The notes below the pieces were generated by a model. It was not told where the DNA came from and did not search any database. It was given only the letters and a program-made list of their open reading frames with translations. Source: a virus. From it: a stretch of 64,000 nt of DNA. Positions 41,042 to 63,845 of this stretch are shown piece after piece; position 1 is the stretch's first letter, and every line of letters starts with the position of its first letter. Where the stretch lies: positions 19,377 to 83,376 of the IMG/VR virus record IMGVR_UViG_3300017735_002163. One strand, 5' to 3'. Made by a program: the position numbers and the translations under genes.

Positions 41042-41076
41042 TACTTTCCCCTAAAAGTATTAGTTTACTATAGATA

Positions 41077-41084
41077 TATTTATC
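41077..41084 (-). promoter_or_regulatory. late promoter GATAAATA with SD-containing leader
   Basis: GATAAATA 35 nt before the ATG at 41041; GGGGAAAG follows close to the start. Confidence 0.7.
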
Positions 41085-41099
41085 TAAATCTAAAATTTT

Positions 41100-42473
41100 T
41101 CACCTTATTAAAACCAGTTCCATCTCATCTGATAAATCTTTGATCTTTATCCAGTTTTTGTTTAAAACTTGTCCTTTAAAAATAGGTATGGTTCCTAAAA
41201 CACAAACCATTGCCCATCCCTGTCTGTCTTGTCTGCCTTCGTATTCTTGTGCATATTCATATGCAGAATTCACTAAAGGTCTTTTCATCTCGTTACCATC
41301 TTCGTCTGTTTCTATAATACATGCATTCTCTGGTAATGCAAATTTAGGATCAAGTCCGTCTTTATAAAAACTTTTCATTGTAGAAGTTTCTGCTTCCATC
41401 CATTCTACAATTTCATATGCCTGCTCAGCTCGTTTGCCATGCAAGTCTTGAAAATATTTATTTCGCCAATGATTCCATTTTGCATTACTGGCTAATGCTG
41501 ATCTCTCAACTATCACACCAAGTATTGCATCACTGTCATCGTCCGCTACTCTAATTTTTCCTTCCTTTGTAACAGTTACCGTAAATCCGTTCCTGTCTTC
41601 GCCTCTGGCATTTCCATCTTCCCATTCAAAAAATTCTGAATATCCTGATGCATTATTAAATAATGTGCCTCCTGCAAAAACATCACCTTGTCCGTTGACT
41701 TTAAATGTTTCTGTCTTAAGATCGTTTTCACCAACGTTACTATTAACACTGATTGCTTTCCAACCTTTGTTTTCTCCTGGATTAGCATCAATTTTTAATA
41801 CTGATCCTGTGAAATCTTTTGACGGTACTTCTATGTTCATCACATCGCCGTCTGCTTGTTTGTGGTACACACTTAATGTTTCGTTGTTGTTCTTTTTAAA
41901 CTTGTTAATACCAAGAGAACCATCACTAAACACATTAAACCCTTGACGATTCATTCTACTAACTGCTCTTAGAGAAAAACTTTTATCGTCATCACCATCA
42001 CTTTCAATTAATACACCCCTGGTAACGCCATCGCCTACACTGGGCAGTATTGCTTCACTGCTGTAGTTTGCACACTTAAAGTGGGCACTACCTCTACCAA
42101 AACTTCTTGGAGCTCTGGTACCGGAACCTAATTGTCCGTTTTTACCAATCATTAAGATCGGATCTCCTTCTTTAGCAAACATTAATCCATCTAAGTTTGC
42201 TTCTATTGAAAACTGGTGTTCACTGGTAAGTGTAATTTTCTCTCTACGTTGCTCACTTGCAGAATTAATCTTGCCTAATGCAACTTGAAGTTTACCTTCT
42301 ATCTCACCTGAGAACTTATTCATTTCAGTTACCATATCGGCAACTTGTTCTGTTAATTGTGCTTCTACCTGCTTTGTAATTTTTTCTGTTACTTCGGCAG
42401 TGATTTTTTCTATGTCTATTTTATCTACTTTTTGTGCTAACGATAATTCTATATTTTGTTTTGCCTTTGGCAT
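41100..42473 (-). CDS. fibre/appendage protein with Peptidase_G2-type self-cleavage domain
   Basis: 457 aa. The N-terminal 75 residues form a coiled coil (VDKIDIEKITAEVTEKITKQ) and the middle is a beta-rich pyocin/fibre-like part. The C-terminal 190 residues start with SGYSEFFEWEDGNARGEDRN and continue with DDSDAILGVIVERSAL and WNHWRNKYFQDLHG, as in the Peptidase_G2 intramolecular chaperone domain that trims itself from trimeric phage appendages. The family normally uses a catalytic Ser/Asp set, which I could not place with certainty. A GGACAC ribosome site lies upstream. Probably a trimeric fibre or spike. Confidence 0.78.
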   Translation of the reverse strand: MPKAKQNIELSLAQKVDKIDIEKITAEVTEKITKQVEAQLTEQVADMVTEMNKFSGEIEGKLQVALGKINSASEQRREKITLTSEHQFSIEANLDGLMFAKEGDPILMIGKNGQLGSGTRAPRSFGRGSAHFKCANYSSEAILPSVGDGVTRGVLIESDGDDDKSFSLRAVSRMNRQGFNVFSDGSLGINKFKKNNNETLSVYHKQADGDVMNIEVPSKDFTGSVLKIDANPGENKGWKAISVNSNVGENDLKTETFKVNGQGDVFAGGTLFNNASGYSEFFEWEDGNARGEDRNGFTVTVTKEGKIRVADDDSDAILGVIVERSALASNAKWNHWRNKYFQDLHGKRAEQAYEIVEWMEAETSTMKSFYKDGLDPKFALPENACIIETDEDGNEMKRPLVNSAYEYAQEYEGRQDRQGWAMVCVLGTIPIFKGQVLNKNWIKIKDLSDEMELVLIR

Positions 42474-42493
42474 GTGTGTGTCCTATTAAAATA

Positions 42494-43444
42494 TTATGAG
42501 CTAATAACTGCTCTGTCTGTGATTCTTCTCCAATCAGTGCCATCGTAAAAAGCCATTGTAGCACCCCCTGTCTCGTTACTTACAAATATCATATCACCTG
42601 GATTGATATATGTTAATGCATTTGCTTCAGCAACTGTGTAACTATCATGAGATGTTGGTTGTCTATCATCGACTGTGACTACACCATAATCAACTACAAT
42701 GTTTGCCGCTTGTGTAATGCTACCATAGTCTTCTACGTGACTAAATGAGCCCATAACATCTAAGTTTGTAACTTGCAAAGTATTTGTACTGTCATCAAAT
42801 GTAAAATCAGCATCGCCTGATAATACGCCACTCTTATTATATTGTACTTGAGTTGTTGAACCGCCTACGCCGCCTGCATCTGTAAAGGAAAGTGTTCCGC
42901 TACCATCTGTTTTAATAACTTGCCCTGCTGTTCCATCTGCTGTAGGCAAATTGTAAGTATTATTAATAGTGATTGAAGAACCATCTACTTTAAATACCTC
43001 AGAGCTATTACTTGCATTGTATACTTTAAATATTGGATTGTTGCCGGAGTTGTTATCTACTACTCTGATAACACTGGCTGAGCCGTTGCTGTGTTTTAAA
43101 TCTAAATAGGCTCCGCTGTATTGTAAACTTGGGTTGGTACCTAATCTTAAATTACCATTTACAAATAATCTTTCATTTGAACTCGTTGAACCGATGGACA
43201 CGGTGTCATTGGCTGAGTCAACACTTAACGTACCGTTGTCAACTAATAGGGTACTTAAACTTTCTCCTACTGGTTTCCAGCCGCTGTTATATATTTTTAA
43301 AGTGCTGTTATCAGAGTCTATCCAAAGGTCGCCAGCAGATAAATCACTGGATGGTTGTGTGCCTGTAGATATTTTGCTACCACTTGACTTTCCGATCTTA
43401 AATTCAGAAGTAGTGGTACCTTTAAAATTACCAAAAATCGCCAT
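42494..43444 (-). CDS. fibre-associated structural protein
   Basis: 316 aa. The N-terminus (AIFGNFKGTTTSEFKIGKSS) is followed by ASDLSAGDLWIDSDNSTLKI-type beta elements, fibre-like modules (RLFVNGNLRLGTNPSLQYSG) and a C-terminal domain ending GATMAFYDGTDWRRITDRAV. That last module is the one often found in tail fibres of marine T4-like phages. It sits between a long fibre and the self-cleaving appendage protein in one operon. Probably part of the distal fibre or its connector. A GAGGAC ribosome site precedes the start. Confidence 0.65.
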   Translation of the reverse strand: MAIFGNFKGTTTSEFKIGKSSGSKISTGTQPSSDLSAGDLWIDSDNSTLKIYNSGWKPVGESLSTLLVDNGTLSVDSANDTVSIGSTSSNERLFVNGNLRLGTNPSLQYSGAYLDLKHSNGSASVIRVVDNNSGNNPIFKVYNASNSSEVFKVDGSSITINNTYNLPTADGTAGQVIKTDGSGTLSFTDAGGVGGSTTQVQYNKSGVLSGDADFTFDDSTNTLQVTNLDVMGSFSHVEDYGSITQAANIVVDYGVVTVDDRQPTSHDSYTVAEANALTYINPGDMIFVSNETGGATMAFYDGTDWRRITDRAVISS

Positions 43445-43513
43445 ATTGTCCTCGGTTAGTTCAATGTCTTAAACATTGTCAGTATCACGCGATACTGTCT
43501 TCGCCGTTACAAG

Positions 43514-43521
43514 TATTTATC
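43514..43521 (-). promoter_or_regulatory. late promoter GATAAATA with SD-containing leader
   Basis: GATAAATA about 70 nt before the ATG at 43444, in the gap after the 1605-aa fibre gene. The leader contains a hairpin (GTATCGCGTGATAC) before the GAGGAC ribosome site. Confidence 0.65.
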
Positions 43522-43556
43522 ACTATTAAATGATTGCTGTGGGATAGGGTAGAATT

Positions 43557-46500
43557 TTAAACTAAAACTTCAATAATGCCTGGAGCGGCTTCTGTTTTTG
43601 TTTCTAAAGCAATTCCAATGATTTGTAGAGAACTTAAAGAATGTGCCATTGCGCCTACCATTGCATGTCCTGGTAGATCACTTGTAATTAATACATCACC
43701 TTTGTTTACGTTGCCAACAACTTTACATGGCACTCTACCACGTAATGCTACTGCTACACCTTGTGATTCGGCATTCATTAAATATGCTGGGTCTGTGGAA
43801 ACAACACCGGCAACTCTATAACTGCCTGGATTGTCTGTTACTGTTACTTCTGCTTCGCCACCTACTATAACAACTGTGCCTGGATCATAACTGGCATCTG
43901 CTGTGTACATTTCTGCCAAATCCGCATAACGTGCCGCTGTTGCTGTTGCTGTAATAACACCTGCACTAAAGTTACCGCTTCCATCTCTGGCTACAATTTT
44001 ATTTGCTGTATTGGCTGATGTGGCTTGAACGTCTATATCGTCTGCATTAACAGTTATATAATCACCTGCGCCAACTGTTAAAGTAACTGCACCTGATGTG
44101 CCTCCGCCTGATAAACCGGCACCGGCAGTTACACTTGTGATATCACCAACGTTACTTGTCCAACCACCATAGTTACCAAGGTCGTTATTAAAGTCACTTA
44201 GTGTAATTTCACCAATTAGTTTTCTTCTTTCTGCGCCATTGTCAAGTAGGATAAGTTCATCTTGTGTACCAACAACTGCCGCTGTCATATCAGTAAGTTC
44301 TGATAAATCTAAAGTAATACTTGGAGTTGTAGTTGCATTACTTACATCTAAACCTGTGCCAACACTTACACTTGTTACTGTGCCTACTGTGTCGGAGTCT
44401 GTGAAACTGAATACACCAGTTGAGCTGTTATATGAAATGTCGCCACTTGCACTAAACAATCCTTTAATATAAGTATCGTCTGTTGTTATCTCGTCTGCCG
44501 CTACAGATATACCATTTCCGCCTGCAACATTAAGTGTTCTTGTTGTGGTTATATCACCACCGCCTGTTAAACCGGCGCCTGCTGTAATGCTTACCGAACT
44601 GTGATCAACGTGTTCATTTGCTACAAAGCCACTTAAACTATCATGTACAATTTGACTGTCGTTTGTGCTGATAGCACCTGATAATTGATTAAACGAAATA
44701 CCAGTTCCTGAACTTAGGTCGCCTCTGGTGTCACTTGCACTTGGACCTGTGTAAGTAATTACACCAGTTGAGCTGTTATAAGCAAGGCTTCCATGGCCGC
44801 CTGTATCACTAACACTGATTAAACCTCGCACTTCTGCATCTGTTCTTTCAGTTGGAGTAGTGTAACTTATAACACCTGTTGTGCTGTTATATGCTAAGTC
44901 ACCACTTGCACTAATTGCCGCTCTGGCTCTTGTGTTTGTAAACCATAAATTAATAGGTGAACCGTCTTCGTCTATATCGTCTGTGCTTAAAGTTATTGCA
45001 CCAGTCTCACCATTAACACTGGTTACTGGAGCAGTTGCGGCTGAGAAACTGATAACACCTGTTGAGCTGTTATAAGAGATATCGCCACTTGCACTAAGTA
45101 AGGCACGTACTTCAGCATCTGTTCTTTCTGTTGGGGTAGTGTAACTTATAACACCAGTAGTATTGTTGTATGCTAAGTCGCCACCTGCACTTATTAATGT
45201 TCTAATATGAGCATCATCTGTGCCAATGCTATCAGCCGCTACACTTATACCTGTGCCAGCGCCTATATTTAATGTTACCTGTCCTGAGTTGCCGCCACCT
45301 GTTAAACCTGAGCCTGCCGCAACACCTGTGATGTCAGCAGGGTTATCGTTTGAAATAGTAACTGTGTCGCCGGAGTTAGTAACAGTTATATTTGTGCCAC
45401 CTGTTAATATTAACGAATCTCCGCTTGTGATAGGAGCCGATGCTCCTGGACCTGATTCTGTTTGCACTGACCAACTTGAATAGTTATCTGCTGTGGTTGT
45501 TATTACACCAGTTGAGCTGTTATAACTTACTAATCCACTTGCACTGATTGAACCTCTGATGTAGGACTGGTCTGCATTTAATGTTACTGCACCTGATGTA
45601 CCACCTCCAGTTAAACCTGTTCCTGCTGTGACACTTTCTATGTCACCTGCGTCATTGGTAAAACTGAATGTACCTGTTGTGCTGTTATAACTTAAATCTC
45701 CACTTGCACTAAAGGCGCCTCTGATTGCACTGATGTCTGCATCAATTGAAACTGTGTTAGTGTCAGATGTAATAGTTGTATATGTTCCGTCGTTAATGCC
45801 TTTGATACCGTGGTATAAATTACCACCACTTGATCTTTGACCTGAATACAGTTCGTGTGTGCTTGAACCTGTTATACCAGGATTAGCATAAGTTTGACCT
45901 GAACTGGATTCTTCTACATATCCAACACTGCCTGCTGGAGTAATTTGTTTCTTAGTACCATTGACATATACCCATGCCTCATTGGAGTCTGTGAATATTG
46001 CTCCTGCATCTGTTACGTCAGTGGTTGGTAAAATTAATTTACCTGTGAATGTTTTAGTACCTGCTAAACTTTGATCACCTGTTGTTCTTATAACTGTGCT
46101 GTCAACTTCGATGTCATTTGCATTTGCTGTAATACCATCTCCGCCAATAACATTTAATGTTCTACTTGTGGTTATATCACCGCCACCAGTTAAACCAGTA
46201 CCTGCTGTGATATCTACTGCTGAATGGTCCACGTGTTCATTTGCTACAAAACCATCTAAACTGTCATGTTGTATTTCACTTTCTACAGCCTGGAATGCTC
46301 CTGTTGAACTATTGTAGTCAACGCCATTACTTGCACTAAAATGTGCTCTAACATTACTTGCTGAATCGTCTATCCTTGCTTGTACTTCTGCAAGGCTTGG
46401 TCCTGTATAAGTAAATACACCTGATGTACTGTTGTAAGCAAGACTTCCGTCGCCACCACTATCTGTAACACTAAAGTGTGTTCTTGTTTCTGCGGCACTT

Positions 46501-48374
46501 GGACCGGTGTAACTAATAATACCCGAAGTGCTGTTATAACTAATAGAGCCATCGCCACTTACATTGTTAGAACTGATGTGAGCTCTTACTTCTGCTGGGC
46601 TTGGACCTGTGTAAGTAATTACACCTGTGGGTGCATCATAACTTAAACTGCCGTCTCCGCCTCCATCACTAACACTAACAAGCGATCTTATTTCGCTGTT
46701 GTCTGCTGTGAAGGCACCTGTACTACTATTATAATTAATACCACTACTTGCACTAAAATCTGTTAGCAATAATATATCTTTATCAGATGCACCGTCGTTG
46801 CTAAACTGCCATCTGCTTGAACCTGTGTCCCATTTTAAATATGGATCGCTACCGGTTGCTACAACATAAATGTGTGCATCGCCATTACCTGCGGCGCCTG
46901 ATCGCATTGTGATACTTGTATCTTCTACAAGTAAATCTACTTGGGTTAAACTGTTAAATTCACCAGTAACATTTAAGTCGCCTGTGACTGTGAAGCCTGG
47001 TACTGTTGCACTGCTTAAATCTACACTGCCTGTAAATGTTTTGATGCCAGCAATACTTTGATTGCCTGTTGTTCTTACTACTGAAGTGTCAACATCTATG
47101 ACACCACTTGCTAAGTCAATGCCGTCACCACCGCTAAAGTGGGCTCTAACATTACTTGCTGAATTATCTATTCTTGCTTGTACTTGTGCTAAACTTGGAC
47201 CTGTGTAAGTAATAACACCTGTTCCTGAGTTATATGCTAAACTTCCGTCTCCACCAGCATCAGTAACACTGATATGAGCTCTTGTTTCTGCGGCACTTGT
47301 TCCTACAAATGTTATAACACCTGTTGTACTATTGTATGACAATGAGCCATCGTTTCCTGCTGTATCGTCAACACTGATGTGAGCTCTTACTTCACTTGCA
47401 CTTGGACCGGTATATGTGAATGCACCTGTTGAGCTGTTATATGCTAAACTTCCATCACCGCCTGTGTCATTAACAGCCAATAATGCTCTACTGGCACTGT
47501 CAAAGTCTGTGATATGGTTATGAGGTATATTGATTTCTACTTCTGAAATTGCAGTAACTTGACCACGTGAATTGACTTGCGTTCTGGAAACGTGTGTAGC
47601 ATCTCCGTATGTGCCTGGCGTATCGCCGAGTACATTATCAGTGATACTGATATCACCTGTACTTGAACTATATGTTATTCCTGTGCCACCTGTGAAGTGA
47701 GCTCTTGTTTCACTTGCACTTGGGCCTGTATAAGTAATTACACCCGATGCATATGAAAGAGAACCATCGCCACCTGTGTCATTTGCACTAAAAAATCCTT
47801 CGACTACAGATTCTAAATCATTAACTTGTGATGATGCAATATCTATTGTTGTATTAGATGCTGATGTTAACTGTCCACCTGCATTAACTGTAAAAGTAGG
47901 CACTGCTGATGCAGTACCATAATTGCCTGCTGTTACTCCTGTAGCACTGAATACAGTTGCTATGTTTATTGAGTCGCCGGCATTTTGTAAATCGTATGAT
48001 GTAGAACTAACTGCACCTGATACTTGAACTGAAAAAGGAGAAGATAAGGAATCTGCCGCTGTTGCTGTTCCTGTTAAGTTGGCTTCTACTGTAGGTGCTA
48101 CTATTGTTTTATCTATGACAAGTTTGTTGGTTGCACTTTGGTATGTTAATACACCGTATCCGGCGCCTGATCTTAACTTTAATGTTGCGTCTGTGGCTAC
48201 GTCATCTTTGTCGAAGCCATCACTGTTGATAATGAAGGTTTCACCTTCAAACTTTGTTTCGCTGTATGTTACAGTATTGGTATATTGTCTTTGCTCAATA
48301 TTACCTTCAATGATCAGTCGACCCTGAACTATTAGTTCTTCGTCTGCATTTATATATGTTCTTTTATTTGCCAT
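43557..48374 (-). CDS. very long tail fibre-type protein
   Basis: 1605 aa, the largest gene here. The N-terminus RTYINADEELIVQGRLIIEG is the usual marine fibre head (ADEELIVQGxLxIxG). There follow more than a dozen beta repeats with NDTGGDGSLSYASGVITYTG, SASETRAHF and GLTGGGDITTSRTLNVIGGD units. The C-terminal 110 residues match those of the 1427-aa protein (ATAARYADLAEMYTAD, VAGVVSTDPAYLMN, GRVPCKVVG, KGDVLITSDLPGHAM). Repeat sequence is shared between the two genes even at the DNA level, so recombination between them is likely. Late box and AGGAT ribosome site upstream. Confidence 0.85.
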   Translation of the reverse strand: MANKRTYINADEELIVQGRLIIEGNIEQRQYTNTVTYSETKFEGETFIINSDGFDKDDVATDATLKLRSGAGYGVLTYQSATNKLVIDKTIVAPTVEANLTGTATAADSLSSPFSVQVSGAVSSTSYDLQNAGDSINIATVFSATGVTAGNYGTASAVPTFTVNAGGQLTSASNTTIDIASSQVNDLESVVEGFFSANDTGGDGSLSYASGVITYTGPSASETRAHFTGGTGITYSSSTGDISITDNVLGDTPGTYGDATHVSRTQVNSRGQVTAISEVEINIPHNHITDFDSASRALLAVNDTGGDGSLAYNSSTGAFTYTGPSASEVRAHISVDDTAGNDGSLSYNSTTGVITFVGTSAAETRAHISVTDAGGDGSLAYNSGTGVITYTGPSLAQVQARIDNSASNVRAHFSGGDGIDLASGVIDVDTSVVRTTGNQSIAGIKTFTGSVDLSSATVPGFTVTGDLNVTGEFNSLTQVDLLVEDTSITMRSGAAGNGDAHIYVVATGSDPYLKWDTGSSRWQFSNDGASDKDILLLTDFSASSGINYNSSTGAFTADNSEIRSLVSVSDGGGDGSLSYDAPTGVITYTGPSPAEVRAHISSNNVSGDGSISYNSTSGIISYTGPSAAETRTHFSVTDSGGDGSLAYNSTSGVFTYTGPSLAEVQARIDDSASNVRAHFSASNGVDYNSSTGAFQAVESEIQHDSLDGFVANEHVDHSAVDITAGTGLTGGGDITTSRTLNVIGGDGITANANDIEVDSTVIRTTGDQSLAGTKTFTGKLILPTTDVTDAGAIFTDSNEAWVYVNGTKKQITPAGSVGYVEESSSGQTYANPGITGSSTHELYSGQRSSGGNLYHGIKGINDGTYTTITSDTNTVSIDADISAIRGAFSASGDLSYNSTTGTFSFTNDAGDIESVTAGTGLTGGGTSGAVTLNADQSYIRGSISASGLVSYNSSTGVITTTADNYSSWSVQTESGPGASAPITSGDSLILTGGTNITVTNSGDTVTISNDNPADITGVAAGSGLTGGGNSGQVTLNIGAGTGISVAADSIGTDDAHIRTLISAGGDLAYNNTTGVISYTTPTERTDAEVRALLSASGDISYNSSTGVISFSAATAPVTSVNGETGAITLSTDDIDEDGSPINLWFTNTRARAAISASGDLAYNSTTGVISYTTPTERTDAEVRGLISVSDTGGHGSLAYNSSTGVITYTGPSASDTRGDLSSGTGISFNQLSGAISTNDSQIVHDSLSGFVANEHVDHSSVSITAGAGLTGGGDITTTRTLNVAGGNGISVAADEITTDDTYIKGLFSASGDISYNSSTGVFSFTDSDTVGTVTSVSVGTGLDVSNATTTPSITLDLSELTDMTAAVVGTQDELILLDNGAERRKLIGEITLSDFNNDLGNYGGWTSNVGDITSVTAGAGLSGGGTSGAVTLTVGAGDYITVNADDIDVQATSANTANKIVARDGSGNFSAGVITATATAARYADLAEMYTADASYDPGTVVIVGGEAEVTVTDNPGSYRVAGVVSTDPAYLMNAESQGVAVALRGRVPCKVVGNVNKGDVLITSDLPGHAMVGAMAHSLSSLQIIGIALETKTEAAPGIIEVLV

Positions 48375-48407: not shown

Positions 48408-48415
48408 TATTTATC
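48408..48415 (-). promoter_or_regulatory. late promoter GATAAATA of the 1605-aa fibre gene
   Basis: GATAAATA 33 nt before the ATG at 48374, immediately downstream of the gp23 terminator; an AGGAT ribosome site follows. Confidence 0.7.
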
Positions 48416-52606: not shown

Positions 52607-52614
52607 TATTTATC
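52607..52614 (-). promoter_or_regulatory. late box GATAAATA, 5 nt before ATG (leaderless type)
   Basis: GATAAATA-TAGAT-ATG on the minus strand, overlapping the last codons of gp20 by two bases. Confidence 0.68.
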
Positions 52615-54334
52615 AAATTGTGTCAGTTGGTGCGCCGCCTGTTGCACCTGGATCTGCTACATCGCCTAAATCTGCTGTAGGATCCATTTCAGTATCTAAC
52701 TCGCCTAAGTCTGGTTCAGCATCTATATCGACATCAATATTTGGTTCTGGTCTAACACCGATGTTACTTAATCCTGCCTGTGTTTGATCTTGTGCTTTTT
52801 CATACTTAGCAAATGCATTTTCTTGACGCCACATTTCTTCATTTTCTTTGATTTCGTCTTCAGTAAGACCAAGATACTTCTTAAGTTTAAATTGGTTGCT
52901 CATGTACGGTATTGCTTGTACCTGTGCAAACAGTTGAGCCTTTTGTGCTTCTAACTCAATTTCTCTATAACTGCTGAAGTTCATAGGCTTGTTAAATTGA
53001 ATATAGAAAGATGATGAATCAATTTCTATTCCTCTGTGTTTGAGGAACATTTTAAATTCTCTGTCTAAATCTTCTTGTATTTGTTTTTGTAAACGTTCAA
53101 CATACTTGGCAAATCTGTACTCTTGAATGTATGCTACACCTACTTTTCCATCATTATATGTCGCGGAACCGTCTTCTGGTCCTGTCGGTAAGTAAGAACT
53201 TGGTATACGTAAACCACGTAGAAGTTTATTGTTAAAGTACCTTAAATCATCTATCTGTCCAAGGTTTTCTCCGCCCGGTAATGTGTCAACTTTTGAACCT
53301 CTGCCGTCTGCCGTTTGTGCAAAGAAGTAATCTTCTAACATGCTCATTGGGTTATAAGCACTATCGGCTACACTGCCGCCTTCTTTGTTTTTACCTGGTA
53401 CACGTTTTTGTTGTACTTCGTATTTAACTTGTTCAATATACTGTCTTGCTTTATGAGGAGGCATGTTACCCACGTCAATAAAGAACACACGTCTTTCAGG
53501 TGCTCTATGCACTCTGTATATGATAATACTATCTTCGAGTAATTCTTTTTGCTTGAATATTTTAAAGATTGGTTCTAATATGCTGATACCAAAAGGCCAG
53601 TTATTGTCCATGCCTTCTGTTAAACTGATGTGTACCACGTGTTCTGCTGGTACAGGTATGCCTTGATCAACACCATCCATTGCACCTGTTAAGTAACTAC
53701 CGCCACTGTCAGAATTAGTAGGACTCATAATGCCTGTTATGCCTTGCCCACTACCAAATGGTCTGGCATGCATTGCCGCTACATCTGTTGCAATTTTTTC
53801 TTGGAAAATTGGGTTTAAGTTTTTGATAAAGTAAGTTTCAATTTTCTTACCTTCTGTTTCATTTACAATAACTTTTTCAATGTTTGCTGGGTCAACCCAA
53901 AACAGTTCATATGTTTCCGGGTCTCTTAAAAATACTTGATCTCCGTACTTGATACTGTTACGGAAAATTCTAAATGCTCTTTTATATAAATTATTATGGT
54001 TACACCATTGTGTTAATGTTTTTTGTACAATTTTGTTTTCAGTGTCACTTGGATCTTCTGTCCAATCTACTGCAAATGGTAATCCTGTTGATTCATCTTC
54101 TTGTGTGCCAAACTCTGCAATCGTGTCTAAGGCCGCATTAATCTCTGTGTCGCCATCCATGTTATCGTATTGCATATAACGTATTAAGCGATTAGGTGAT
54201 CCTGCGTACACTTCTGGTAACCAACTGGATAGTTGATTAGCACCGAACCCATGACCATCACCGCCTGGTGTTGATTGGACATTTAATGGCAAGCCACTAT
54301 TGTCAACGGGTGTAAAATGTTTTCTCCAACTCAT
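52613..54334 (-). CDS. 20: gp20 portal protein
   Basis: 573 aa (T4 gp20 is 524). The dodecameric portal starts prohead assembly and passes DNA. Typical segments are RLIRYMQYDNMDGDTEINAA with LDTIAEFGTQED, VDPANIEKVIVNET, EHVVHISLTEGM, ILEPIFKIFKQKELLEDSII, YRVHRAPERRVFFIDVGNMP, and GENLGQIDDLRYFNNKLLRG with LRIPSSYLP. The C-terminal end (about 510-573) is Asp/Pro/Gly-rich and disordered-looking. It heads the capsid operon, with combined sigma70-like and late promoter elements upstream and a weak GGAAC ribosome site. Confidence 0.97.
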   Translation of the reverse strand: MSWRKHFTPVDNSGLPLNVQSTPGGDGHGFGANQLSSWLPEVYAGSPNRLIRYMQYDNMDGDTEINAALDTIAEFGTQEDESTGLPFAVDWTEDPSDTENKIVQKTLTQWCNHNNLYKRAFRIFRNSIKYGDQVFLRDPETYELFWVDPANIEKVIVNETEGKKIETYFIKNLNPIFQEKIATDVAAMHARPFGSGQGITGIMSPTNSDSGGSYLTGAMDGVDQGIPVPAEHVVHISLTEGMDNNWPFGISILEPIFKIFKQKELLEDSIIIYRVHRAPERRVFFIDVGNMPPHKARQYIEQVKYEVQQKRVPGKNKEGGSVADSAYNPMSMLEDYFFAQTADGRGSKVDTLPGGENLGQIDDLRYFNNKLLRGLRIPSSYLPTGPEDGSATYNDGKVGVAYIQEYRFAKYVERLQKQIQEDLDREFKMFLKHRGIEIDSSSFYIQFNKPMNFSSYREIELEAQKAQLFAQVQAIPYMSNQFKLKKYLGLTEDEIKENEEMWRQENAFAKYEKAQDQTQAGLSNIGVRPEPNIDVDIDAEPDLGELDTEMDPTADLGDVADPGATGGAPTDTI

Positions 54335-54355: not shown

Positions 54356-54384
54356 ATTGTAGCAGTATTTATCAGAAAAGTCAA
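54356..54384 (-). promoter_or_regulatory. gp20 promoter: sigma70-like with embedded late box
   Basis: Minus strand TTGACT (54384-54379), 17-nt spacer, TACAAT (54361-54356). The spacer contains GATAAATA (54373-54366), so early/middle and late start signals overlap at the head of the capsid operon. Confidence 0.65.
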
Positions 54385-54390
54385 GTATTT

Positions 54391-57300
54391 TTAGATGTTC
54401 TTGATTTGGTCTATTAGTTCACCGCTTTGTCTTGCTGATTGCATTTCTGTTCTTTGCCCTTGATTTACAAGTTGTGTTAGCAATTCTTCAACTTTGCTTT
54501 CTTTACCTGGAGCACCGTCAGTTGCACTTGCCATAGCAGGCTTTTTAGCACTGAGGTCTTGAGATGCTGGTGATGGTTGTACAGTATCAGTACTGCCAAA
54601 GCCCATTTTTTCTGCTGTGGTGTTATCAACTAAAGTAGACTCTTGCGGTGATACTGGTATTAGTTTTGTTAATTTATCTGTGTCAACTTTTGCTAAACGC
54701 TCGTATGCTTCGCTTAGTGAATTTACTTGTGCTATAGTGGTTTTAATTGCTGTATCTGAAATGCCTTCATTCATTGTGCCATTAAAACTGGTCATTGCAT
54801 CACTGAATAACAATAATGCTGATGCATTTTTACTAACACCTTCTGCATTAATATCTTCTTCACCAAACTTTTTAACTTTTTCTAAAGGACTGTCACCGCC
54901 AAATGCCCAATTAACAAAACTGCCAATGCCTTCCATTAATCCACCTGCACCTGCTACAGCCTGGCCTCCGCCATATGCCGCCATTGCCGCACCAAAGGCT
55001 ACCATTGCCTCTGCGTTTGATGTGATTTTTGCAACATCGCCTATGTCTGCGTCAGCAAATTCTTTTAATTTTTCTAAAGGACTCTTGCCTGGTAATAGAT
55101 CTAATAATCCAGCAATGGTTCCGCCCACAGCACCTACTGCCGCTCCTGCGCCAAATGCCGCTAAGCCGCCGCCAAGTGCCGCCATGCCCCCGGCAACTTT
55201 TGCTAAGTTCATGCCGTCGATGCCTTCAAACGATTTTAATCCTTCTGCTAAAACAGGAAGTGATTTTCCTAATATGACTGATGCCGCTCCAATACCAAGT
55301 GATGCCGCCGCAACTGCCGCCGCAAAAAATGCCGCACCTGCAACTGCCGCCGGAGTAAATGCTGTAAAGAAACCAGCAATTATGCCGCCTAATCCTTTGC
55401 CTATGCCTTTGCCAACATTGGCAATACTTTTACCAAGTCCTTTACCGTTGTCACTGCCTATACCTGAAGGACCTTTTGCTGTGGCGCCGCCAAATAGTTT
55501 ATCTTTTAAAACACCTATGCCTTTTTTAACTGCCATACCACCAACAATTAATCCGCCAATCTTTAACCAGTTAATACGTTCAAAGGCTGTTTTTGCGCCA
55601 TCGTTGTGTGCATCTTTAATGGCTGTCTCTAATTGTTCAGTTTTAACCTCGTCTATGCTGATGCCTTTTTCTTTGGCAACGTCTTGTTTAATTTCGTTTT
55701 TGCGTTCTGCAGAATTTCGAAGTAACCTTGAAAGTTCTTCTTGTTCCGGCCCTGCAGGCAGAGTCATAAGTTCTTTCTCAACACTTGCTTGTTGTGTATC
55801 AGTAAGTGCAACTGCTTCTCCATTACGTTCCATCACAATACCCGACTTGCTGGTTTTTTCATCGTTACCAGTGAAGTCATATATAAATGTTGCTAATGAT
55901 TTTAATGCACTGCCTACTGAACTTAAAAAACCGCCTAATACTTTCATTTTTTCTATAAAGGTATTGAATCCATCTTTTACATTGTTAAATGTTGATTTAG
56001 TATCTTCCCAAAATTGTTTAAAATCAAAAGTCCTAATAAAGTTAGCAACTGTTTCACCTGCACTTTTTATCATCGGAGATAACTTATCTCTTAGTACCTG
56101 AGCAAAATCTTTTACTTCACCGTCTGCTTCTGTAACAGGCATTAATAAATCAATGAATGCTTTTCTAATCTCATCCATTGCATCATTGAACACACTCATT
56201 ATCCCTGGAGTTTTAACCATTTGTTTTTGTTGTTCTTTTGTTAAATGTGTTACATCTGTGACTGCTTCGCCTTGTTTTTTTATTACCTTGCCGTTTGCGT
56301 CGACTATATCTTTAGCAAGTAATAATGCTTTCCCATTTTTATCAAGGATGGCATTATTTTTGCCACGTTTTATACCTTCATTAGTAAATGCATCTGCCAA
56401 GTAAGACAATGGTTTTCCAAGTGCGGCATTAATAGAAGTTTCTATGCCTTCGAATGCGCCTGATAGCATGGCTTTGGCGTTGTCAAATGTTGCCGCGGCT
56501 ATTGCCATTTGATTAACTTCGTCTGCCACACCGTCTGCTAATTTTTTTGCGGCCCTCAATAGGTCTGGTTGCATTGATGCAATCATTTCCACCATTGGAT
56601 TTGTTTGCCCTAATGTTGCCAACATGCTCTGGAATCTCTGAGCACCTTTGCCGCCGTCTGCGGCCATTTCTTCACCTAATTTAATAAATTGTTTTGATAA
56701 TTTTGCTTGTTCTTTTGCGGCACCTTCAGTGTCGCCTGCTTTTATCATTTTGTTAATGTTAAGCAAGGAACCTTCGATCTCTCTACCAGCACTTGTGCCT
56801 GTGGCCATTAAGGCTTCCCTCATTGCCTGAGCACCTTCACTCTGGAATGCATTCACATCAAACATTGCCATACCCATTTGGTCTATGACTTCTTGACTAA
56901 CACCAACTGCTTTTAAATTAGACATAGAACTTGCAGTTGCTACCCTGAATGCTTCTGCGGCTTCAGGTCCTAATGTTTGTGTTGCTCTTATAAATGCTAA
57001 TTTTACTGTGGCTTGATCGGCTAAAGTTTTTTCACTTGCGCCACGTATATCATCTATACTTTTACCTAACAGTTGAGTTTGTAAAAATTGTTCTTTGTAC
57101 AGTTTTTTTGTACGTTTAGCAGTTTCGATAGCATCAATCTTTCCTAAAATACCCAATTGCTGTCTGGTCTCTAATTCTTCTGCTAACACTGTAGACGCTT
57201 CATGCATTGTCATACCAAATTCACTACCAAATCCAGTTGCTTTAGCAAATTCACGTTGAGCCTGTACAAATGCAGGCTTACCCACTGTTTGTACAATACC

Positions 57301-57864
57301 GCTGTATTCAGCCATAAGGCCCGCGGCCTGCTTAGTGGTCATGCCTAATTGATTTAACCCTGCTATAGCATTTGCTGATTCATTGAGAGTGGTATCAAAG
57401 CCTACACCAGTTAATGATAAGTCGCTTAATACCTTACCTAACCCATAAGAACCTGATACTACTGACGCAAAACCACCAACTAAGGTGCCTATAACTGTGC
57501 CTGATACGTATGTTAGAGCTTTTGCAAACATGCCTAACGAGTCTGAGGCCTCATCAGCAATGCCGCCTTTACCGCCTTTATTGTTCTTTTTATCCGTATT
57601 TTTCGCTATGTCGTTTAAAGCCTTGCCTGCTTTATCTCTATCTTTATTGGCTTCTTTTGAGTCTTTTTTATCGTTTTTGTTACCATCAACAATGTGTCCA
57701 ACTAATTTTTCTAATGCTTTTTTACTGTCTTCGTTGTAATTTTTATTAGAATCTGCGGCGGCTAATAACTTTAATTGCGTTTCTTCTAACGCCCATGCTG
57801 GCATATCAACGGGAATAGATACACCGTCTGGTCCAGGTAAATTAATTGTTATTTTTTCTGCCAT
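54391..57864 (-). CDS. tape-measure-like tail protein
   Basis: 1157 aa. Long helical stretches with several hydrophobic Ala/Gly-rich segments (VSGTVIGTLVGGFASVVSGS, FFAAAVAAASLGIGAASVIL, AAFGAGAAVGAVGGTIAGLL) and phage-tail-protein repeats, as in tape measure proteins. T4 gp29 has 590 aa and no such hydrophobic segments, so this is a different or enlarged type. N-terminus ITINLPGPDGVSIPVDMPAW, C-terminus KVEELLTQLVNQGQRTEMQS. It lies back to back with gp26 and its apparent frameshift product, the classical neighbourhood of tail chaperone and tape measure. No clear ribosome site precedes the ATG. Confidence 0.7.
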   Translation of the reverse strand: MAEKITINLPGPDGVSIPVDMPAWALEETQLKLLAAADSNKNYNEDSKKALEKLVGHIVDGNKNDKKDSKEANKDRDKAGKALNDIAKNTDKKNNKGGKGGIADEASDSLGMFAKALTYVSGTVIGTLVGGFASVVSGSYGLGKVLSDLSLTGVGFDTTLNESANAIAGLNQLGMTTKQAAGLMAEYSGIVQTVGKPAFVQAQREFAKATGFGSEFGMTMHEASTVLAEELETRQQLGILGKIDAIETAKRTKKLYKEQFLQTQLLGKSIDDIRGASEKTLADQATVKLAFIRATQTLGPEAAEAFRVATASSMSNLKAVGVSQEVIDQMGMAMFDVNAFQSEGAQAMREALMATGTSAGREIEGSLLNINKMIKAGDTEGAAKEQAKLSKQFIKLGEEMAADGGKGAQRFQSMLATLGQTNPMVEMIASMQPDLLRAAKKLADGVADEVNQMAIAAATFDNAKAMLSGAFEGIETSINAALGKPLSYLADAFTNEGIKRGKNNAILDKNGKALLLAKDIVDANGKVIKKQGEAVTDVTHLTKEQQKQMVKTPGIMSVFNDAMDEIRKAFIDLLMPVTEADGEVKDFAQVLRDKLSPMIKSAGETVANFIRTFDFKQFWEDTKSTFNNVKDGFNTFIEKMKVLGGFLSSVGSALKSLATFIYDFTGNDEKTSKSGIVMERNGEAVALTDTQQASVEKELMTLPAGPEQEELSRLLRNSAERKNEIKQDVAKEKGISIDEVKTEQLETAIKDAHNDGAKTAFERINWLKIGGLIVGGMAVKKGIGVLKDKLFGGATAKGPSGIGSDNGKGLGKSIANVGKGIGKGLGGIIAGFFTAFTPAAVAGAAFFAAAVAAASLGIGAASVILGKSLPVLAEGLKSFEGIDGMNLAKVAGGMAALGGGLAAFGAGAAVGAVGGTIAGLLDLLPGKSPLEKLKEFADADIGDVAKITSNAEAMVAFGAAMAAYGGGQAVAGAGGLMEGIGSFVNWAFGGDSPLEKVKKFGEEDINAEGVSKNASALLLFSDAMTSFNGTMNEGISDTAIKTTIAQVNSLSEAYERLAKVDTDKLTKLIPVSPQESTLVDNTTAEKMGFGSTDTVQPSPASQDLSAKKPAMASATDGAPGKESKVEELLTQLVNQGQRTEMQSARQSGELIDQIKNI

Positions 57865-57898: not shown

Positions 57899-57906
57899 GA
57901 TAAATA
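57899..57906 (+). promoter_or_regulatory. late promoter GATAAATA of gp26
   Basis: Plus strand GATAAATA 70 nt before the gp26 ATG at 57977, which has AGGAG upstream. It lies inside the leader region of the divergent tape-measure transcript, so the two late transcripts overlap at their 5' ends. Confidence 0.6.
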
Positions 57907-57943: not shown

Positions 57944-57951
57944 TATTTATC
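57944..57951 (-). promoter_or_regulatory. late promoter GATAAATA of the tape-measure gene
   Basis: Minus strand GATAAATA 80 nt before the ATG at 57864. Its transcript would cover the plus-strand late box at 57899-57906, giving about 45 bp of overlapping divergent transcription. Confidence 0.6.
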
Positions 57952-57976
57952 AATGTCTTAAACAGGAGTTTTAATT

Positions 57977-58834
57977 ATGTCAAAAAACCAAAATCCACTT
58001 CAGGGCTATTTTAGAAGTCCTAAGTTATACACCAAGATACCATCGCAAGGTTTATTTTATATTGATGATGACGTCGTTGACATGCCAGAAAATGGAGAGT
58101 TAGCAATATTTCCAATGACTGCCAAAGACGAAATGATCATGAAAAATCCAGATGCGTTGCTTAACGGTGAATCAGTGGCCCAGGTAATACAAAGTTGTGT
58201 ACCAGCAGTCAATAAGCCAAGGAGTCTCATCAGCAACGATGTAGATGCACTGCTTATTGCTATACAAGGTGCTACTTACGGTGACGAAGTTAACATATCC
58301 GGTACATGTCCAGAATGTGAGGAACCAATTGAAAGTGTTGCCAGTATTGAAATGGCATTAGACACAATGAGCATTGTGGAAGAATCATATGTACACAAAA
58401 CAGCAGACGGTTTAGAACTTGAAATAAGACCATTCACATATGAAAGTTCAGTAAAAGCCGGAATTGCAAATTTCCAAACATCAAGAAGTTTACAAAGCAT
58501 TCAAGAAATTGATGACGAAGTAGAACAACTTAGACAGTTTAACACAAACTTTATGCAAGTTGCCGCACTTAACTTTGAACTCATTGTTGACAGTGTAGCA
58601 AGTGTCAGAGGCAAAGATGCTGAAGGTGAAGAGTTCCTTGTAACTGATAGAAACAATATCAGAGAGTTCCTTGAAAATTCTGAAAGCAGTATTGGTAAGG
58701 CAGTTGAGGCCAAAATTGCAGACGTAAACAAAGTTGGTGTTAACAAAGAAGTTCAATTAGAATGCGAAAAATGTGAGGTCCAATTTACAAAAGAAATTGG
58801 CTTTGACCCTGTAAATTTTTTCACGGCTTCCTAA
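57977..58834 (+). CDS. 26: gp26-like baseplate hub / tail assembly protein
   Basis: 285 aa (T4 gp26 is 208). The N-terminus SPKLYTKIPSQGLFYIDDDV followed by EMIMKNPDALLNGESVAQVI is typical of the T4 gp26 baseplate family in marine phages. Two CxxC pairs (GTCPECEEPI at about 113-122 and LECEKCEVQF near the end) probably bind zinc. In T4, gp26 is needed to assemble the baseplate hub. The stop is preceded by a -1 slippery run, so a longer product is predicted. AGGAG lies 9 nt before the ATG. Confidence 0.82.
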   Translation: MSKNQNPLQGYFRSPKLYTKIPSQGLFYIDDDVVDMPENGELAIFPMTAKDEMIMKNPDALLNGESVAQVIQSCVPAVNKPRSLISNDVDALLIAIQGATYGDEVNISGTCPECEEPIESVASIEMALDTMSIVEESYVHKTADGLELEIRPFTYESSVKAGIANFQTSRSLQSIQEIDDEVEQLRQFNTNFMQVAALNFELIVDSVASVRGKDAEGEEFLVTDRNNIREFLENSESSIGKAVEAKIADVNKVGVNKEVQLECEKCEVQFTKEIGFDPVNFFTAS

Positions 58835-59055
58835 GTCGATCTGAACCCCAAGAGATTCTCAACCTCATAAACAAACTTAGAAAAGAAGCCGATCAATTAG
58901 AAAAGAGTATAATTGAGATAGCCGTGTATTCCAATGGAAGTATATCATGGCAAGATGCTTATATGATGAGTGCAAATGAAAGAGTTGTGGCTACAAAAAT
59001 AATAAACAAGTACAACAAAGCAAAAGCAGGAAAACCAGAATCAGAAGAATTATAA
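58813..59055 (+). CDS. 51: gp51-like tail assembly chaperone, reached by -1 frameshift
   Basis: Before the gp26 stop the message reads GTA AAT TTT TTC. A AAT TTT (58813-58819) and the overlapping T TTT TTC (58816-58822) are canonical -1 slippery heptamers. The -1 frame is open from just after a TGA at 58804-58806 to TAA at 59053-59055 and encodes SRSEPQEILNLINKLRKEAD, EIAVYSNGSISWQDAYMM and VVATKIINKYNKAKAGKP, which resembles gp51-type hub-assembly proteins. The frame has no ATG until near its middle (58966). A fusion of about 359 aa would parallel the lambda G/GT tail chaperones. Confidence 0.72.
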   Translation, partial: KFFHGFLSRSEPQEILNLINKLRKEADQLEKSIIEIAVYSNGSISWQDAYMMSANERVVATKIINKYNKAKAGKPESEEL

Positions 59056-59408: not shown

Positions 59409-59473
59409 TAATGTGCAATATATGTAACATTAAGGACGCATACAGCGGTTAATGTGCAATATATGTAACATTA
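59409..59473 (+). repeat. two 24-bp direct repeats, each with inverted ends
   Basis: TAATGTGCAATATATGTAAC plus ATTA occurs at 59409-59432 and again at 59450-59473, 17 bp apart. Each copy has TAATGT/ACATTA at its ends, so it could bind a dimeric protein. Both copies contain an ATG that opens a frame starting MCNICNI: one of 13 codons, and one of 59 codons (59452-59631) with seven further cysteines. Confidence 0.6.
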
Positions 59474-59750: not shown

Positions 59751-60176
59751 TTATATCTTATCAAGTGCTTCACGCAAGATTTTTGAACCGCCTACTCTAA
59801 CATTAATAATTCCGTTATAGTAATCGTCTGTGAGCAATACATTTCTGTCAAACTGCTCTTTTGCTTCGAGGTAACTTGCAACACCTCTGCTTGGACAAAT
59901 GTGTAAAATTTGTCTGGTAAATTTATCTTCGCCTAATTCTAACACATCTGCTTGTAGATTATCTGAACTACCCCAATAATCACGCCAGTCACTTTCTTTA
60001 GTGCCACGACGTTTGTTCTTTTTACCTTTCAAGGGTGGTTTGGTTGTTTTGAATTTGGCAAGTTTTTTACCTACATACATCCTGCCATTGGTTGTATTAG
60101 TGATCAGATATACAAATGCTTCACAGCCTTCTGGCAATACGTTTAGTACTTTGTTGTTATATGTCCAATCACTCAT
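59751..60176 (-). CDS. GIY-YIG-type endonuclease-like protein
   Basis: 141 aa. The N-terminal half contains AFVYLITNTTNGRMYVGKKL, a variant GIY-YIG pair (VYLI / YVGKK), followed by a basic loop (TTKPPLKGKKNKRRGTKESD) and WRDYWGSSDNLQADVLELGE. A Glu in SYLEAKEQFDRN is where the metal-binding Glu of the family is expected. Proteins like this occur near gp46 in marine T4-like phages. It may be a homing-type or repair nuclease. No strong ribosome site is seen; ACTAAATA lies 6 nt before the ATG and may be a weak late box. It is 9 nt downstream of gp46. Confidence 0.65.
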   Translation of the reverse strand: MSDWTYNNKVLNVLPEGCEAFVYLITNTTNGRMYVGKKLAKFKTTKPPLKGKKNKRRGTKESDWRDYWGSSDNLQADVLELGEDKFTRQILHICPSRGVASYLEAKEQFDRNVLLTDDYYNGIINVRVGGSKILREALDKI

Positions 60177-61953: not shown

Positions 61954-62970
61954 CTAAATTTCTAATCCGTTATATATTCCGATGAGTTGTTGTTTGTCTA
62001 CTGTGTTGCTTTCTATGGTTTCTAATTGTGTAATAACAATTTGATCCACACTTTCAAATTTAATCTCGCCGCCTTCGAATTCATCCTGTTCTTCTTTGAC
62101 AGCAATTAGTTGTAACTCTCTAACATTATATTGTTCAGCCATCTTCTCTCTGATAAAGTTTGCCTCTTCGTATGAGATGCTGATGTCTAATTTTACCCTT
62201 GAATATGTATACTCGTCGAGTAAGTCTTCGTGGTTGTCTAACAATTGTTTTAGTGTTATAACTGAATACTTAGGACACTGGTCCCAATTAACATACACTG
62301 GCTCTTCGCCCCATGTCAAGAACATTGCACCACGTTCGTTGTCGCTTACGTCTGCATAGTTGTGGGGGAACGCATTGCCAATATAATGAATGTTGTTTTT
62401 GTACTGACGTTTGTGAAAGTGTCCACTAAACACATACTCAGGACCACTTAGCATTTTATCATTGATGCCACCATGGTCTGGCATTTCTACCATTGCATTC
62501 ATTTTAAAGTAAGGTAATTCAAAATGCCCAAACATGTATTTGCATTTCATTTTAGACACTGTTTTATAATCGTCGCCTACAAGCCATGGTATAATAGCAA
62601 CATCATCTTGTTCAAACATGTCATCTACCATAACAAAGTTGGACAAGTCACGAGCATATTCAATGCTGTTCATCTCACGTTTGTCACGATAGTATAAGTC
62701 ATGATTACCTGTAATGAAATATACTTTTTCAAAGTTGTCGTTTAACTTTTTAAGGTCCTTGATTGAAGCATTTAGAGTAGCAACATTTACACTTGCTCTA
62801 TGATGGCTCCAATCGCCCAGAAAAATACATGTCTCAGCATTCCTGGCTTTTGCTTCTGCAATAAACCAGTCTATGTACCTGTGACAATCTTGTAAATGTA
62901 CGCGGCTATTTTGCTTTAGTCCGTAGTGTATATCTGTAAAGCAAGCCGCTGTCTTGAACAGCGAACTCAT
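61954..62970 (-). CDS. 47: gp47 recombination endonuclease subunit (Mre11-like)
   Basis: 338 aa (T4 gp47 is 339). Calcineurin-type nuclease with metal motifs in order: FTDIHYG (Asp13, His15), IFLGDWSHHR, YFITGNHDLYY, MFGHFELPYF and VFSGHFHKRQY. Partner of gp46. The start ATG overlaps the gp55 stop as TAATG, showing translational coupling of the late sigma factor with the recombination nuclease. Confidence 0.97.
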   Translation of the reverse strand: MSSLFKTAACFTDIHYGLKQNSRVHLQDCHRYIDWFIAEAKARNAETCIFLGDWSHHRASVNVATLNASIKDLKKLNDNFEKVYFITGNHDLYYRDKREMNSIEYARDLSNFVMVDDMFEQDDVAIIPWLVGDDYKTVSKMKCKYMFGHFELPYFKMNAMVEMPDHGGINDKMLSGPEYVFSGHFHKRQYKNNIHYIGNAFPHNYADVSDNERGAMFLTWGEEPVYVNWDQCPKYSVITLKQLLDNHEDLLDEYTYSRVKLDISISYEEANFIREKMAEQYNVRELQLIAVKEEQDEFEGGEIKFESVDQIVITQLETIESNTVDKQQLIGIYNGLEI

Positions 62971-63845
62971 TATTGGTCAAATGCCTCGATATCGTTAGTT
63001 TCTGATTCAGTAGATTCTCTTAGTCTACGCATTTCATCTTCGTGTTGTATCTGTCTACTATAACTTGGAAGATGTCCGCTGTCAATCAAAATATCATCTC
63101 TAATGTTTTGATTACGTTTCTCAAGATTAAGAACTCTTGTGAAACTGTTATTAACTGCGGCTGTGTAGTACGCAAATGGGTTGTCTGATTTTGCTTCGTT
63201 GAACTGTAGGCCTACTTGGCTAAGTTGAACAAGTGCTTGTCCTCTCATTTCATCTACGTATGTGTACCCTCTCCAGTTTGCCCTGTGAGAATATCTTTCT
63301 ACTAATTTCAAAAACATTGTACCGAGTGTATTTGTAATACGTCCTTTGTTAGGCTCGAAGTGGCCATTACTTAAACTTCCTTCCCAGTGGCTTCTTACAA
63401 CCTCTTTGATCTCACCATTAACATAAGCATAATGCTTGAATGGTGGGAAGTTTACTTTGGCTTTTGTTTCGGCTTCGTTTTTTGGGTTTCTTTTTCTACC
63501 TGGCTCTAAGGGAATATGCTCGTATGTCATAACTCTAAAAGTCACATCTTCGTCACTGATTGTAGCAGTGTCCACCGCAAAGTCTTTTTGCTTAGGTTTG
63601 TTTCTGTAATCTTTCTTGTCATGACCAAGCATTGCCTGTGCGTAGCCTTCTGATTGAATTCTCGATGCTTGATTGTCTTTTGCAATCTGTAATGCAGTAG
63701 CATCAATTTTGCTGACGTCATCGAGGATAATATCGTTTTGTATATATTTGTCATCCATAACCCAACAAAATGTAATTTTGCTTTTGTGAATTTCTTTTAA
63801 TATATCTTTGTTGTTGAGGTAGTTTGTTTTTTTAGCAACTGCCAT
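62970..63845 (-). CDS. 55: gp55 late-transcription sigma factor
   Basis: 291 aa, longer than T4 gp55 (185). The C-terminal half is the sigma-like part: YVDEMRGQALVQLSQVGLQF, SDNPFAYYTAAVNNSFTRVL and NLEKRNQNIRDDILIDSG. Preceding residues (FLKLVERYSHRANWRGY) belong to the same domain. In T4, gp55 directs polymerase to TATAAATA promoters; the many GATAAATA/AATAAATA boxes in this window are its probable targets. The N-terminal 180 residues are not recognised. A sigma70 promoter and AGGAGTC ribosome site allow synthesis before late genes. Confidence 0.85.
   Translation of the reverse strand: MAVAKKTNYLNNKDILKEIHKSKITFCWVMDDKYIQNDIILDDVSKIDATALQIAKDNQASRIQSEGYAQAMLGHDKKDYRNKPKQKDFAVDTATISDEDVTFRVMTYEHIPLEPGRKRNPKNEAETKAKVNFPPFKHYAYVNGEIKEVVRSHWEGSLSNGHFEPNKGRITNTLGTMFLKLVERYSHRANWRGYTYVDEMRGQALVQLSQVGLQFNEAKSDNPFAYYTAAVNNSFTRVLNLEKRNQNIRDDILIDSGHLPSYSRQIQHEDEMRRLRESTESETNDIEAFDQ

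What the first reader, a model, noticed from the sequence alone, without database searches (positions are those of the whole stretch)
58804..59055. Programmed -1 frameshift joining gp26 to a gp51-like chaperone next to the tape measure gene
Overlapping heptamers A AAT TTT and T TTT TTC lie 13-22 nt before the gp26 stop. The -1 frame is open for 80 codons, starts only after a TGA at 58804-58806, and has no normal start codon before its middle. The product would resemble the G/GT tail chaperones of other phages. The divergent neighbour is the likely tape measure. This ties a T4 hub protein pair to the general tail-chaperone frameshift scheme.
Basis: partly seen in the sequence, partly recalled or inferred. 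Interest (0 to 1): 0.78.

Follow-up and report, generated by a model that had tools for sequence, protein, structure and literature searches.

The report
Frameshifted tail chaperone of T4-like phage
An uncultured T4-like phage appears to make two versions of a tail-building helper protein from one gene, by letting some ribosomes slip back one base at a conserved slippery spot; the signal is real and very strongly conserved, but this trick was already reported for T4-like phages.

Summary
The gp26-like gene (57977-58834, +) ends GTA AAT TTT TTC ACG GCT TCC TAA; a -1 frame (58807-59052) opens right after TGA 58804-58806 and has no usable start. In 32 distinct related loci AAATTTTT is invariant, and the -1 frame is always open and under purifying selection (pN/pS 0.27, like gp26 itself). 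The same design, T TTT TT[C/T] before the gp26 stop plus a conserved -1 ORF, occurs in 14 of 15 sampled jumbo phages, cyanophages and KVP40- or PhiW-14-like phages (degenerate in Ackermannvirus 3M) and in 80/80 distinct IMG/VR loci. These genomes carry one PF12322 gene; T4 and RB43 carry two: gp26 (short) and gp51 (gp26-like plus a C-terminal tail), and ten T4-type gp26 genes lack the slip site. So the shift does not join gp26 to a second chaperone: it adds a ~78-residue tail, making a gp51-like long form, as in lambda G/GT. That T4-like phages make tail chaperones by poly-T frameshift, with T4 using separate short and long genes, was reported in 2022 (Vladimirov et al., known here through citing papers and memory). 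A well-supported new member of a known kind; the T4 link is not new.

The parts
57964..57968 (+). AGGAG Shine-Dalgarno sequence of the gp26-like gene, 8 nt before its ATG
   Evidence: read from sequence
57977..58834 (+). gp26-like ORF, 285 aa, short form of the chaperone (TAC-N, G-like)
   Evidence: PF12322 T4_baseplate E 9.4e-16 over residues 36-282; phrog_150 baseplate hub E 4.7e-18; only PF12322 match in the 83-kb record
58804..58806 (+). TGA that closes the -1 frame immediately upstream, so that any shift must occur between here and the gp26 stop
   Evidence: -1 frame opens at the same offset in nearly all relatives
58813..58819 (+). slippery heptamer A AAT TTT, invariant in the window's clade
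   Evidence: 32 of 32 distinct loci
58816..58822 (+). overlapping slippery heptamer T TTT TTC, the form shared with jumbo phages and cyanophages; 7 of 32 loci in the window's clade carry TTT TCC instead
58832..58834 (+). frame-0 stop TAA that ends the short form
58819..59055 (+). -1 frame extension, 78 aa read after the shift, C-terminal domain of the long form (TAC-NC, GT-like, gp51-like), including stop TAA 59053-59055
   Evidence: purifying selection in the -1 frame; homologous to the jumbo-phage extensions, hhalign 99.1%
54391..57864 (-). divergent 1157-aa ORF, probable tape measure protein
   Evidence: homologues (23-31% identity, 829-1287 aa) at the same place in 8 of 10 sampled clade members, weak match to the neighbour in Paride (E 1.6e-6), three hydrophobic segments; portal-like gene follows at 52613-54334. 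No family hit
57899..57906 (+). GATAAATA, probable late promoter for the gp26-like gene
   Evidence: 18 copies in the window against 3.95 expected
57944..57951 (-). GATAAATA on the opposite strand, probable late promoter for the divergent tape measure gene

Best explanation
One gene makes two nested forms of a tail assembly chaperone. Most ribosomes read 57977-58834 and make the 285-aa gp26-like short form. A minority slip back one base at A AAT TTT TTC (58813-58822), bypass the TAA at 58832 and continue in the -1 frame to 59055, giving a long form of about 359 aa with a ~78-aa C-terminal domain. By analogy with lambda G/GT and T4 gp26/gp51, the short form would coat the tape measure protein and the long form's tail would recruit tail or hub subunits. 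Shown here: slip site, open and constrained -1 frame, absence of a usable start, conservation, relation to PF12322 and, in sister groups, to T4 gp51. Inferred: that slippage happens, its efficiency, and the chaperone function.
For: Invariant GTA AAT TTT T at synonymous sites; -1 frame coding under purifying selection; no conserved start or Shine-Dalgarno site for the extension; T TTT TTC (12) or T TTT TTT (2) plus -1 ORF in 14 named phages outside Ackermannviridae, and T TTT TTC in 80/80 distinct IMG/VR loci; one PF12322 gene in 15 records of this type (none scored in SCTP-2) against two in T4 and RB43; slip site absent from gp26 of ten T4-type genomes; in-silico fusions of the cyanophage/KVP40 group align over 244 columns with T4-type gp51 including its tail. 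Independent literature.
Against: No experiment. No conserved stimulatory RNA structure was found (RNAalifold -2.16 kcal/mol), although the window's own downstream sequence folds better than shuffles (z -2.45), and no upstream Shine-Dalgarno-like stimulator is evident. Some relatives have possible starts for the downstream ORF (ATG overlapping the stop in Atu_ph07 and Phosso; ATG or GTG near the stop in many cyanophages), so reinitiation could contribute there.
Confidence: 0.92

Rival explanations
1. The -1 ORF is a separate short gene (gp51) translated from its own internal start or by termination-reinitiation at the gp26 stop.
For: Databases annotate it so: S-RIM8 and Melnitz 45-47-aa hub assembly ORFs, GAP32_242, Phosso gene 319 with ATG overlapping the gp26 stop. 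Atu_ph07 also has an ATG overlapping the stop.
Against: In the window the first start lies about 39 codons into the ORF with no Shine-Dalgarno site; constraint extends upstream of every start; Paride has no start codon at all; the slip site is kept even where a start exists.
Confidence: 0.04
2. The shift is made by RNA polymerase slippage on the T run (transcriptional slippage), yielding mRNAs with an altered T count.
For: A run of six T in the window and many relatives.
Against: Seven of 32 loci have only five T (TTTTTCC) with the design intact, and the A AAT in front of the run is invariant, which suits tRNA re-pairing better than polymerase slippage.
Confidence: 0.03
3. Chance overlap: an accidental T run and a non-coding open frame.
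For: The 10-nt run alone is expected 0.68 times in this AT-rich window.
Against: Conservation across dozens of divergent loci and codon-level selection in the -1 frame.
Confidence: 0.01

Closest known systems
Tail assembly chaperones of T4-like phages, TAC-N/TAC-NC (Vladimirov, Gautam and Davidson 2022, Virology 566:9-15)
   Same: gp26-family short form and frameshift-extended long form with a poly-T slip site; T4 itself uses a short and a separate long gene, as described in PMC10885494 and PMC12846349. The paper itself is not held; further detail is from memory.
   Different: The window's clade is uncultured and has A AAT TTT T[T/C]C, with A AAT TTT invariant rather than T TTT TTC.
T4 gp26 and gp51
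   Same: Both T4 proteins are PF12322; gp26 resembles the short form, gp51 the long form with a C-terminal tail.
   Different: T4 uses two divergent genes and no slip site; RB43 has the two genes in tandem.
Lambda gpG/gpGT
   Same: Short chaperone and -1 frameshift-extended form, encoded beside the tape measure gene (review PMC5009743).
   Different: No sequence similarity tested; different slippery sequence; here the tape measure gene is divergent, not downstream.
Vandenendeviridae/Andersonviridae TAC (phage Adele, PMC12846349)
   Same: -1 frameshift at a conserved GTTTTT motif near the end of TAC-N.
   Different: Different phage families; homology to PF12322 not tested here.

Membership tests
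Frameshifted tail assembly chaperones (G/GT type) | Two overlapping ORFs in -1 phase, the second without its own start | tested here: met
[quoted passage not shown]
   invariant in 32 distinct loci; 80 of 80 loci in sister groups
Frameshifted tail assembly chaperones (G/GT type) | Second ORF under protein-coding selection | tested here: met
   pN/pS 0.27, third-position excess in the -1 frame
Frameshifted tail assembly chaperones (G/GT type) | Gene lies beside the tape measure gene | tested here: inconclusive
   1157-aa divergent neighbour is tape-measure-like by length, position and hydrophobic segments but has no family hit; in two sampled clade members (L022, L034) the nearest divergent ORF found is only about 200 aa
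Frameshifted tail assembly chaperones (G/GT type) | Helical chaperone fold like HK97 gp14 or lambda gpG | tested here: inconclusive
   HK97 tail assembly chaperone 2ob9 appears at Z 5.2, rmsd 3.6 over 81 residues, level with unrelated rows
Frameshifted tail assembly chaperones (G/GT type) | Both products made at a set ratio, bind the tape measure protein, absent from the virion | not testable with these tools
   needs experiment
PF12322 (T4 gp26/gp51 family) | Profile match above the curated cut-off | tested here: met
   58.6 bits against cut-off 24.5
T4 gp51 (long form) | C-terminal tail homologous to gp51 residues about 202-249 | tested here: inconclusive
   window clade 27%, jumbo group 4%, cyanophage/KVP40 group 96.4%; window clade to jumbo group 99.1% (hhalign)

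The most novel reading that the evidence does not exclude
The -1 frameshift at gp26 is the ancestral state of the whole T4-like supergroup, from giant phages through cyanophages to KVP40-like phages. The classical T4 group lost it by gene duplication: one copy kept the stop (gp26), the other fused the tail in frame (gp51). The short cyanophage gp51 listed as a nearly core T4 gene is then an annotation artefact. The window's clade has moved its dependence to an A AAT TTT slip site, tolerating loss of T TTT TTC.
Probability: 0.7. Interest if true: 0.45.

Novelty: new member of a known kind. Interest (0 to 1): 0.36.

Why it matters
It supports one scheme for how long-tailed phages balance two forms of their tape-measure chaperone, points to a C-terminal domain missing from many genome annotations (including the truncated gp51 of cyanophages), and offers a case where frameshifting and gene duplication are alternative ways to the same pair of proteins. 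The main idea is already in print, so the gain is breadth and detail.

Tried and rejected
A conserved downstream stem-loop was sought and not found. tblastn of the bare extension reached only Phosso, Atu_ph07 and SCTP-2 meaningfully; the Rhodococcus phage Dorin hit (E 3) lies among unrelated small genes and was rejected. Rfam gave only three tRNAs. No solved relative of gp51 was found by sequence, and comparison of the gp26 and gp51 models with the PDB gave no convincing match; the models match other T4-like hub proteins in BFVD. The 2022 Virology paper could not be opened. A scan of viral contigs for the bare slip motif was not analysed further.

Full report
What is there. The window lies in an 83,376-base virus record. 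The gp26-like ORF 57977-58834 (+) has a good Shine-Dalgarno sequence (AGGAG 57964-57968) and matches PF12322 (E 9.4e-16) and phrog_150, baseplate hub. Its last codons are GTA AAT TTT TTC ACG GCT TCC TAA. The -1 frame is closed by TGA at 58804-58806 and then open to TAA at 59053-59055 (82 codons). The first possible start in it is GTG 58924, then ATG 58963, without Shine-Dalgarno matches.

More than chance. A run AAATTTTTTC is expected 0.68 times in this window, so the run by itself proves nothing. Forty-one relatives were fetched from IMG/VR, and 32 sequences (window included) are distinct at the junction. In all 32 the stretch GTAAATTTTT is invariant, and the flanking FDPV and TAS codons are nearly so. 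Outside the junction AAT is 41% of Asn codons, TTT 65% of Phe codons and GTA 36% of Val codons; 24 lineages differ by more than 20% in the adjoining gp26 DNA. Lineages are not fully independent, so I give no formal p-value, but codon usage alone cannot explain it. Past the gp26 stop, 28 sequences have no stop in the -1 frame over 60 codons, against 176 and 153 in the other two frames. Pairwise differences fall on -1-frame codon positions 1, 2, 3 as 1206, 708, 2490, and pN/pS is 0.27, like gp26 itself (0.29).

Which heptamer. Both A AAT TTT and T TTT TTC are present in the window. In its clade 7 of 32 loci read TTT TCC, which breaks T TTT TTC but leaves A AAT TTT and a P-site T TTT slip. In the other groups it is T TTT TT[C/T] that is kept: Paride, GAP32, RaK2, Atu_ph07, Phosso, SCTP-2, 2.275.O, XaC1, cyanophage S-RIM8, PhiW-14, KVP40-like VH1_2019 and ZPAH1 carry TTTTTTC, Melnitz and XacN1 carry TTTTTTT, and the Ackermannvirus 3M has a degenerate GTT TTC. 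In 80 of 80 distinct IMG/VR loci, nearly all cyanophage-like, TTTTTTC sits at exactly the same distance from the stop; the search patterns used to fetch these loci did not include this site. No conserved RNA structure follows the site; the window itself folds better than shuffles (z -2.45), but relatives do not share the stem.

What it is. T4 gp26 (208 aa) is PF12322 over its whole length; T4 gp51 (249 aa) is PF12322 over residues 1-201 plus a C-terminal tail. Records with the frameshift design carry one PF12322 gene, and T4 and RB43 carry two (SCTP-2 scored none with this profile although tblastn finds its gp26). Ten T4-type genomes have no slip site at the end of gp26. When the frameshift is read through in silico, the cyanophage/KVP40-group fusions align with T4-type gp51 over 244 columns, tail included (hhalign 99.4%, E 4e-21), and the tails alone match at 96.4%. 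The window clade's tail matches the jumbo-phage tails (99.1%) but gp51's tail only weakly (27%). So the long form is the counterpart of gp51 by position, by the shared PF12322 body and by a chain of relatives, not by direct similarity of the tail.

Surroundings. The divergent 1157-aa ORF 54391-57864 (-) has homologues at the same place in 8 of 10 sampled clade members, diverges fast (23-31% identity), has three hydrophobic segments and is followed by a portal-like gene, the layout of RaK2, GAP32 and Paride. It is probably the tape measure protein, though no family profile says so. GATAAATA motifs on both strands between the two genes look like late promoters (18 in the window, 3.95 expected).

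Prior knowledge. A review lists T4 as the exception to G/GT frameshifting (PMC5009743). Sullivan et al. noted that cyanophage and marine vibriophage gp51 lack the first ~200 residues and resemble T4 gp51 only at the C-terminus (PMC3037559), which the frameshift explains. Vladimirov, Gautam and Davidson (2022) identified the tail assembly chaperones of T4-like phages; PMC10885494 summarises that some T4-like phages carry one short and one longer fused gene instead of frameshifting, and PMC12846349 cites the same paper for poly-T frameshift signals in TAC-N genes of T4-like phages. From memory, its abstract names genes 26 and 51 of T4 as this pair; I could not open it. The finding is therefore a strong new member, in an uncultured clade with a shifted slip motif, of a published kind.

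Confidence. That the -1 ORF is expressed as a frameshift fusion: 0.92. That it acts as a tail assembly chaperone pair like G/GT: about 0.85, by family inference. Efficiency and stimulators are unknown.

Noticed in passing
L049:3732-3869, L050:3723-3866, L044:6867-7043: Annotated short genes (cyanophage 'gp51 baseplate hub assembly catalyst', GAP32_242) are start-trimmed pieces of the -1 extension, so public annotations appear to miss the fusion and the first residues of the extension.
   Followed up: partly
L059:3001-4294: In RB43 the long (gp51-like) and short (gp26-like) PF12322 genes lie in tandem on one strand, unlike the divergent T4 arrangement; this fits an origin by tandem duplication.
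   Followed up: no
window, 18 sites, e.g. 41077-41084, 43514-43521, 48408-48415, 54366-54373, 57944-57951 (-) and 57899-57906 (+): GATAAATA occurs 18 times against 3.95 expected, several of them 30-80 nt upstream of structural genes: likely a variant of the T4 late promoter TATAAATA; a gp55-like late sigma factor is encoded at 62970-63845.
   Followed up: partly
window 59409-59432 and 59450-59473: A perfectly repeated 24-nt near-palindrome TAATGTGCAATATATGTAACATTA in a ~700-nt stretch without clear genes downstream of the extension.
   Followed up: no
L022 and L034, upstream of the gp26 homologue: In these clade members the nearest divergent ORF found is only about 190-213 aa, so the large tape-measure-like gene is not always the immediate neighbour.
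   Followed up: no
window 36758-48374: Very large structural ORFs (1427 and 1605 aa) with many repeats of a motif like SVTDAGGDGSLAYNSTTGVITYTGPSAAE, probably fibre or surface proteins.
   Followed up: no
window 59751-60176: A 141-aa protein best matching phrog_447, labelled NAD synthetase, but also several homing endonuclease families (GIY-YIG-like); the PHROG label looks doubtful.
   Followed up: no
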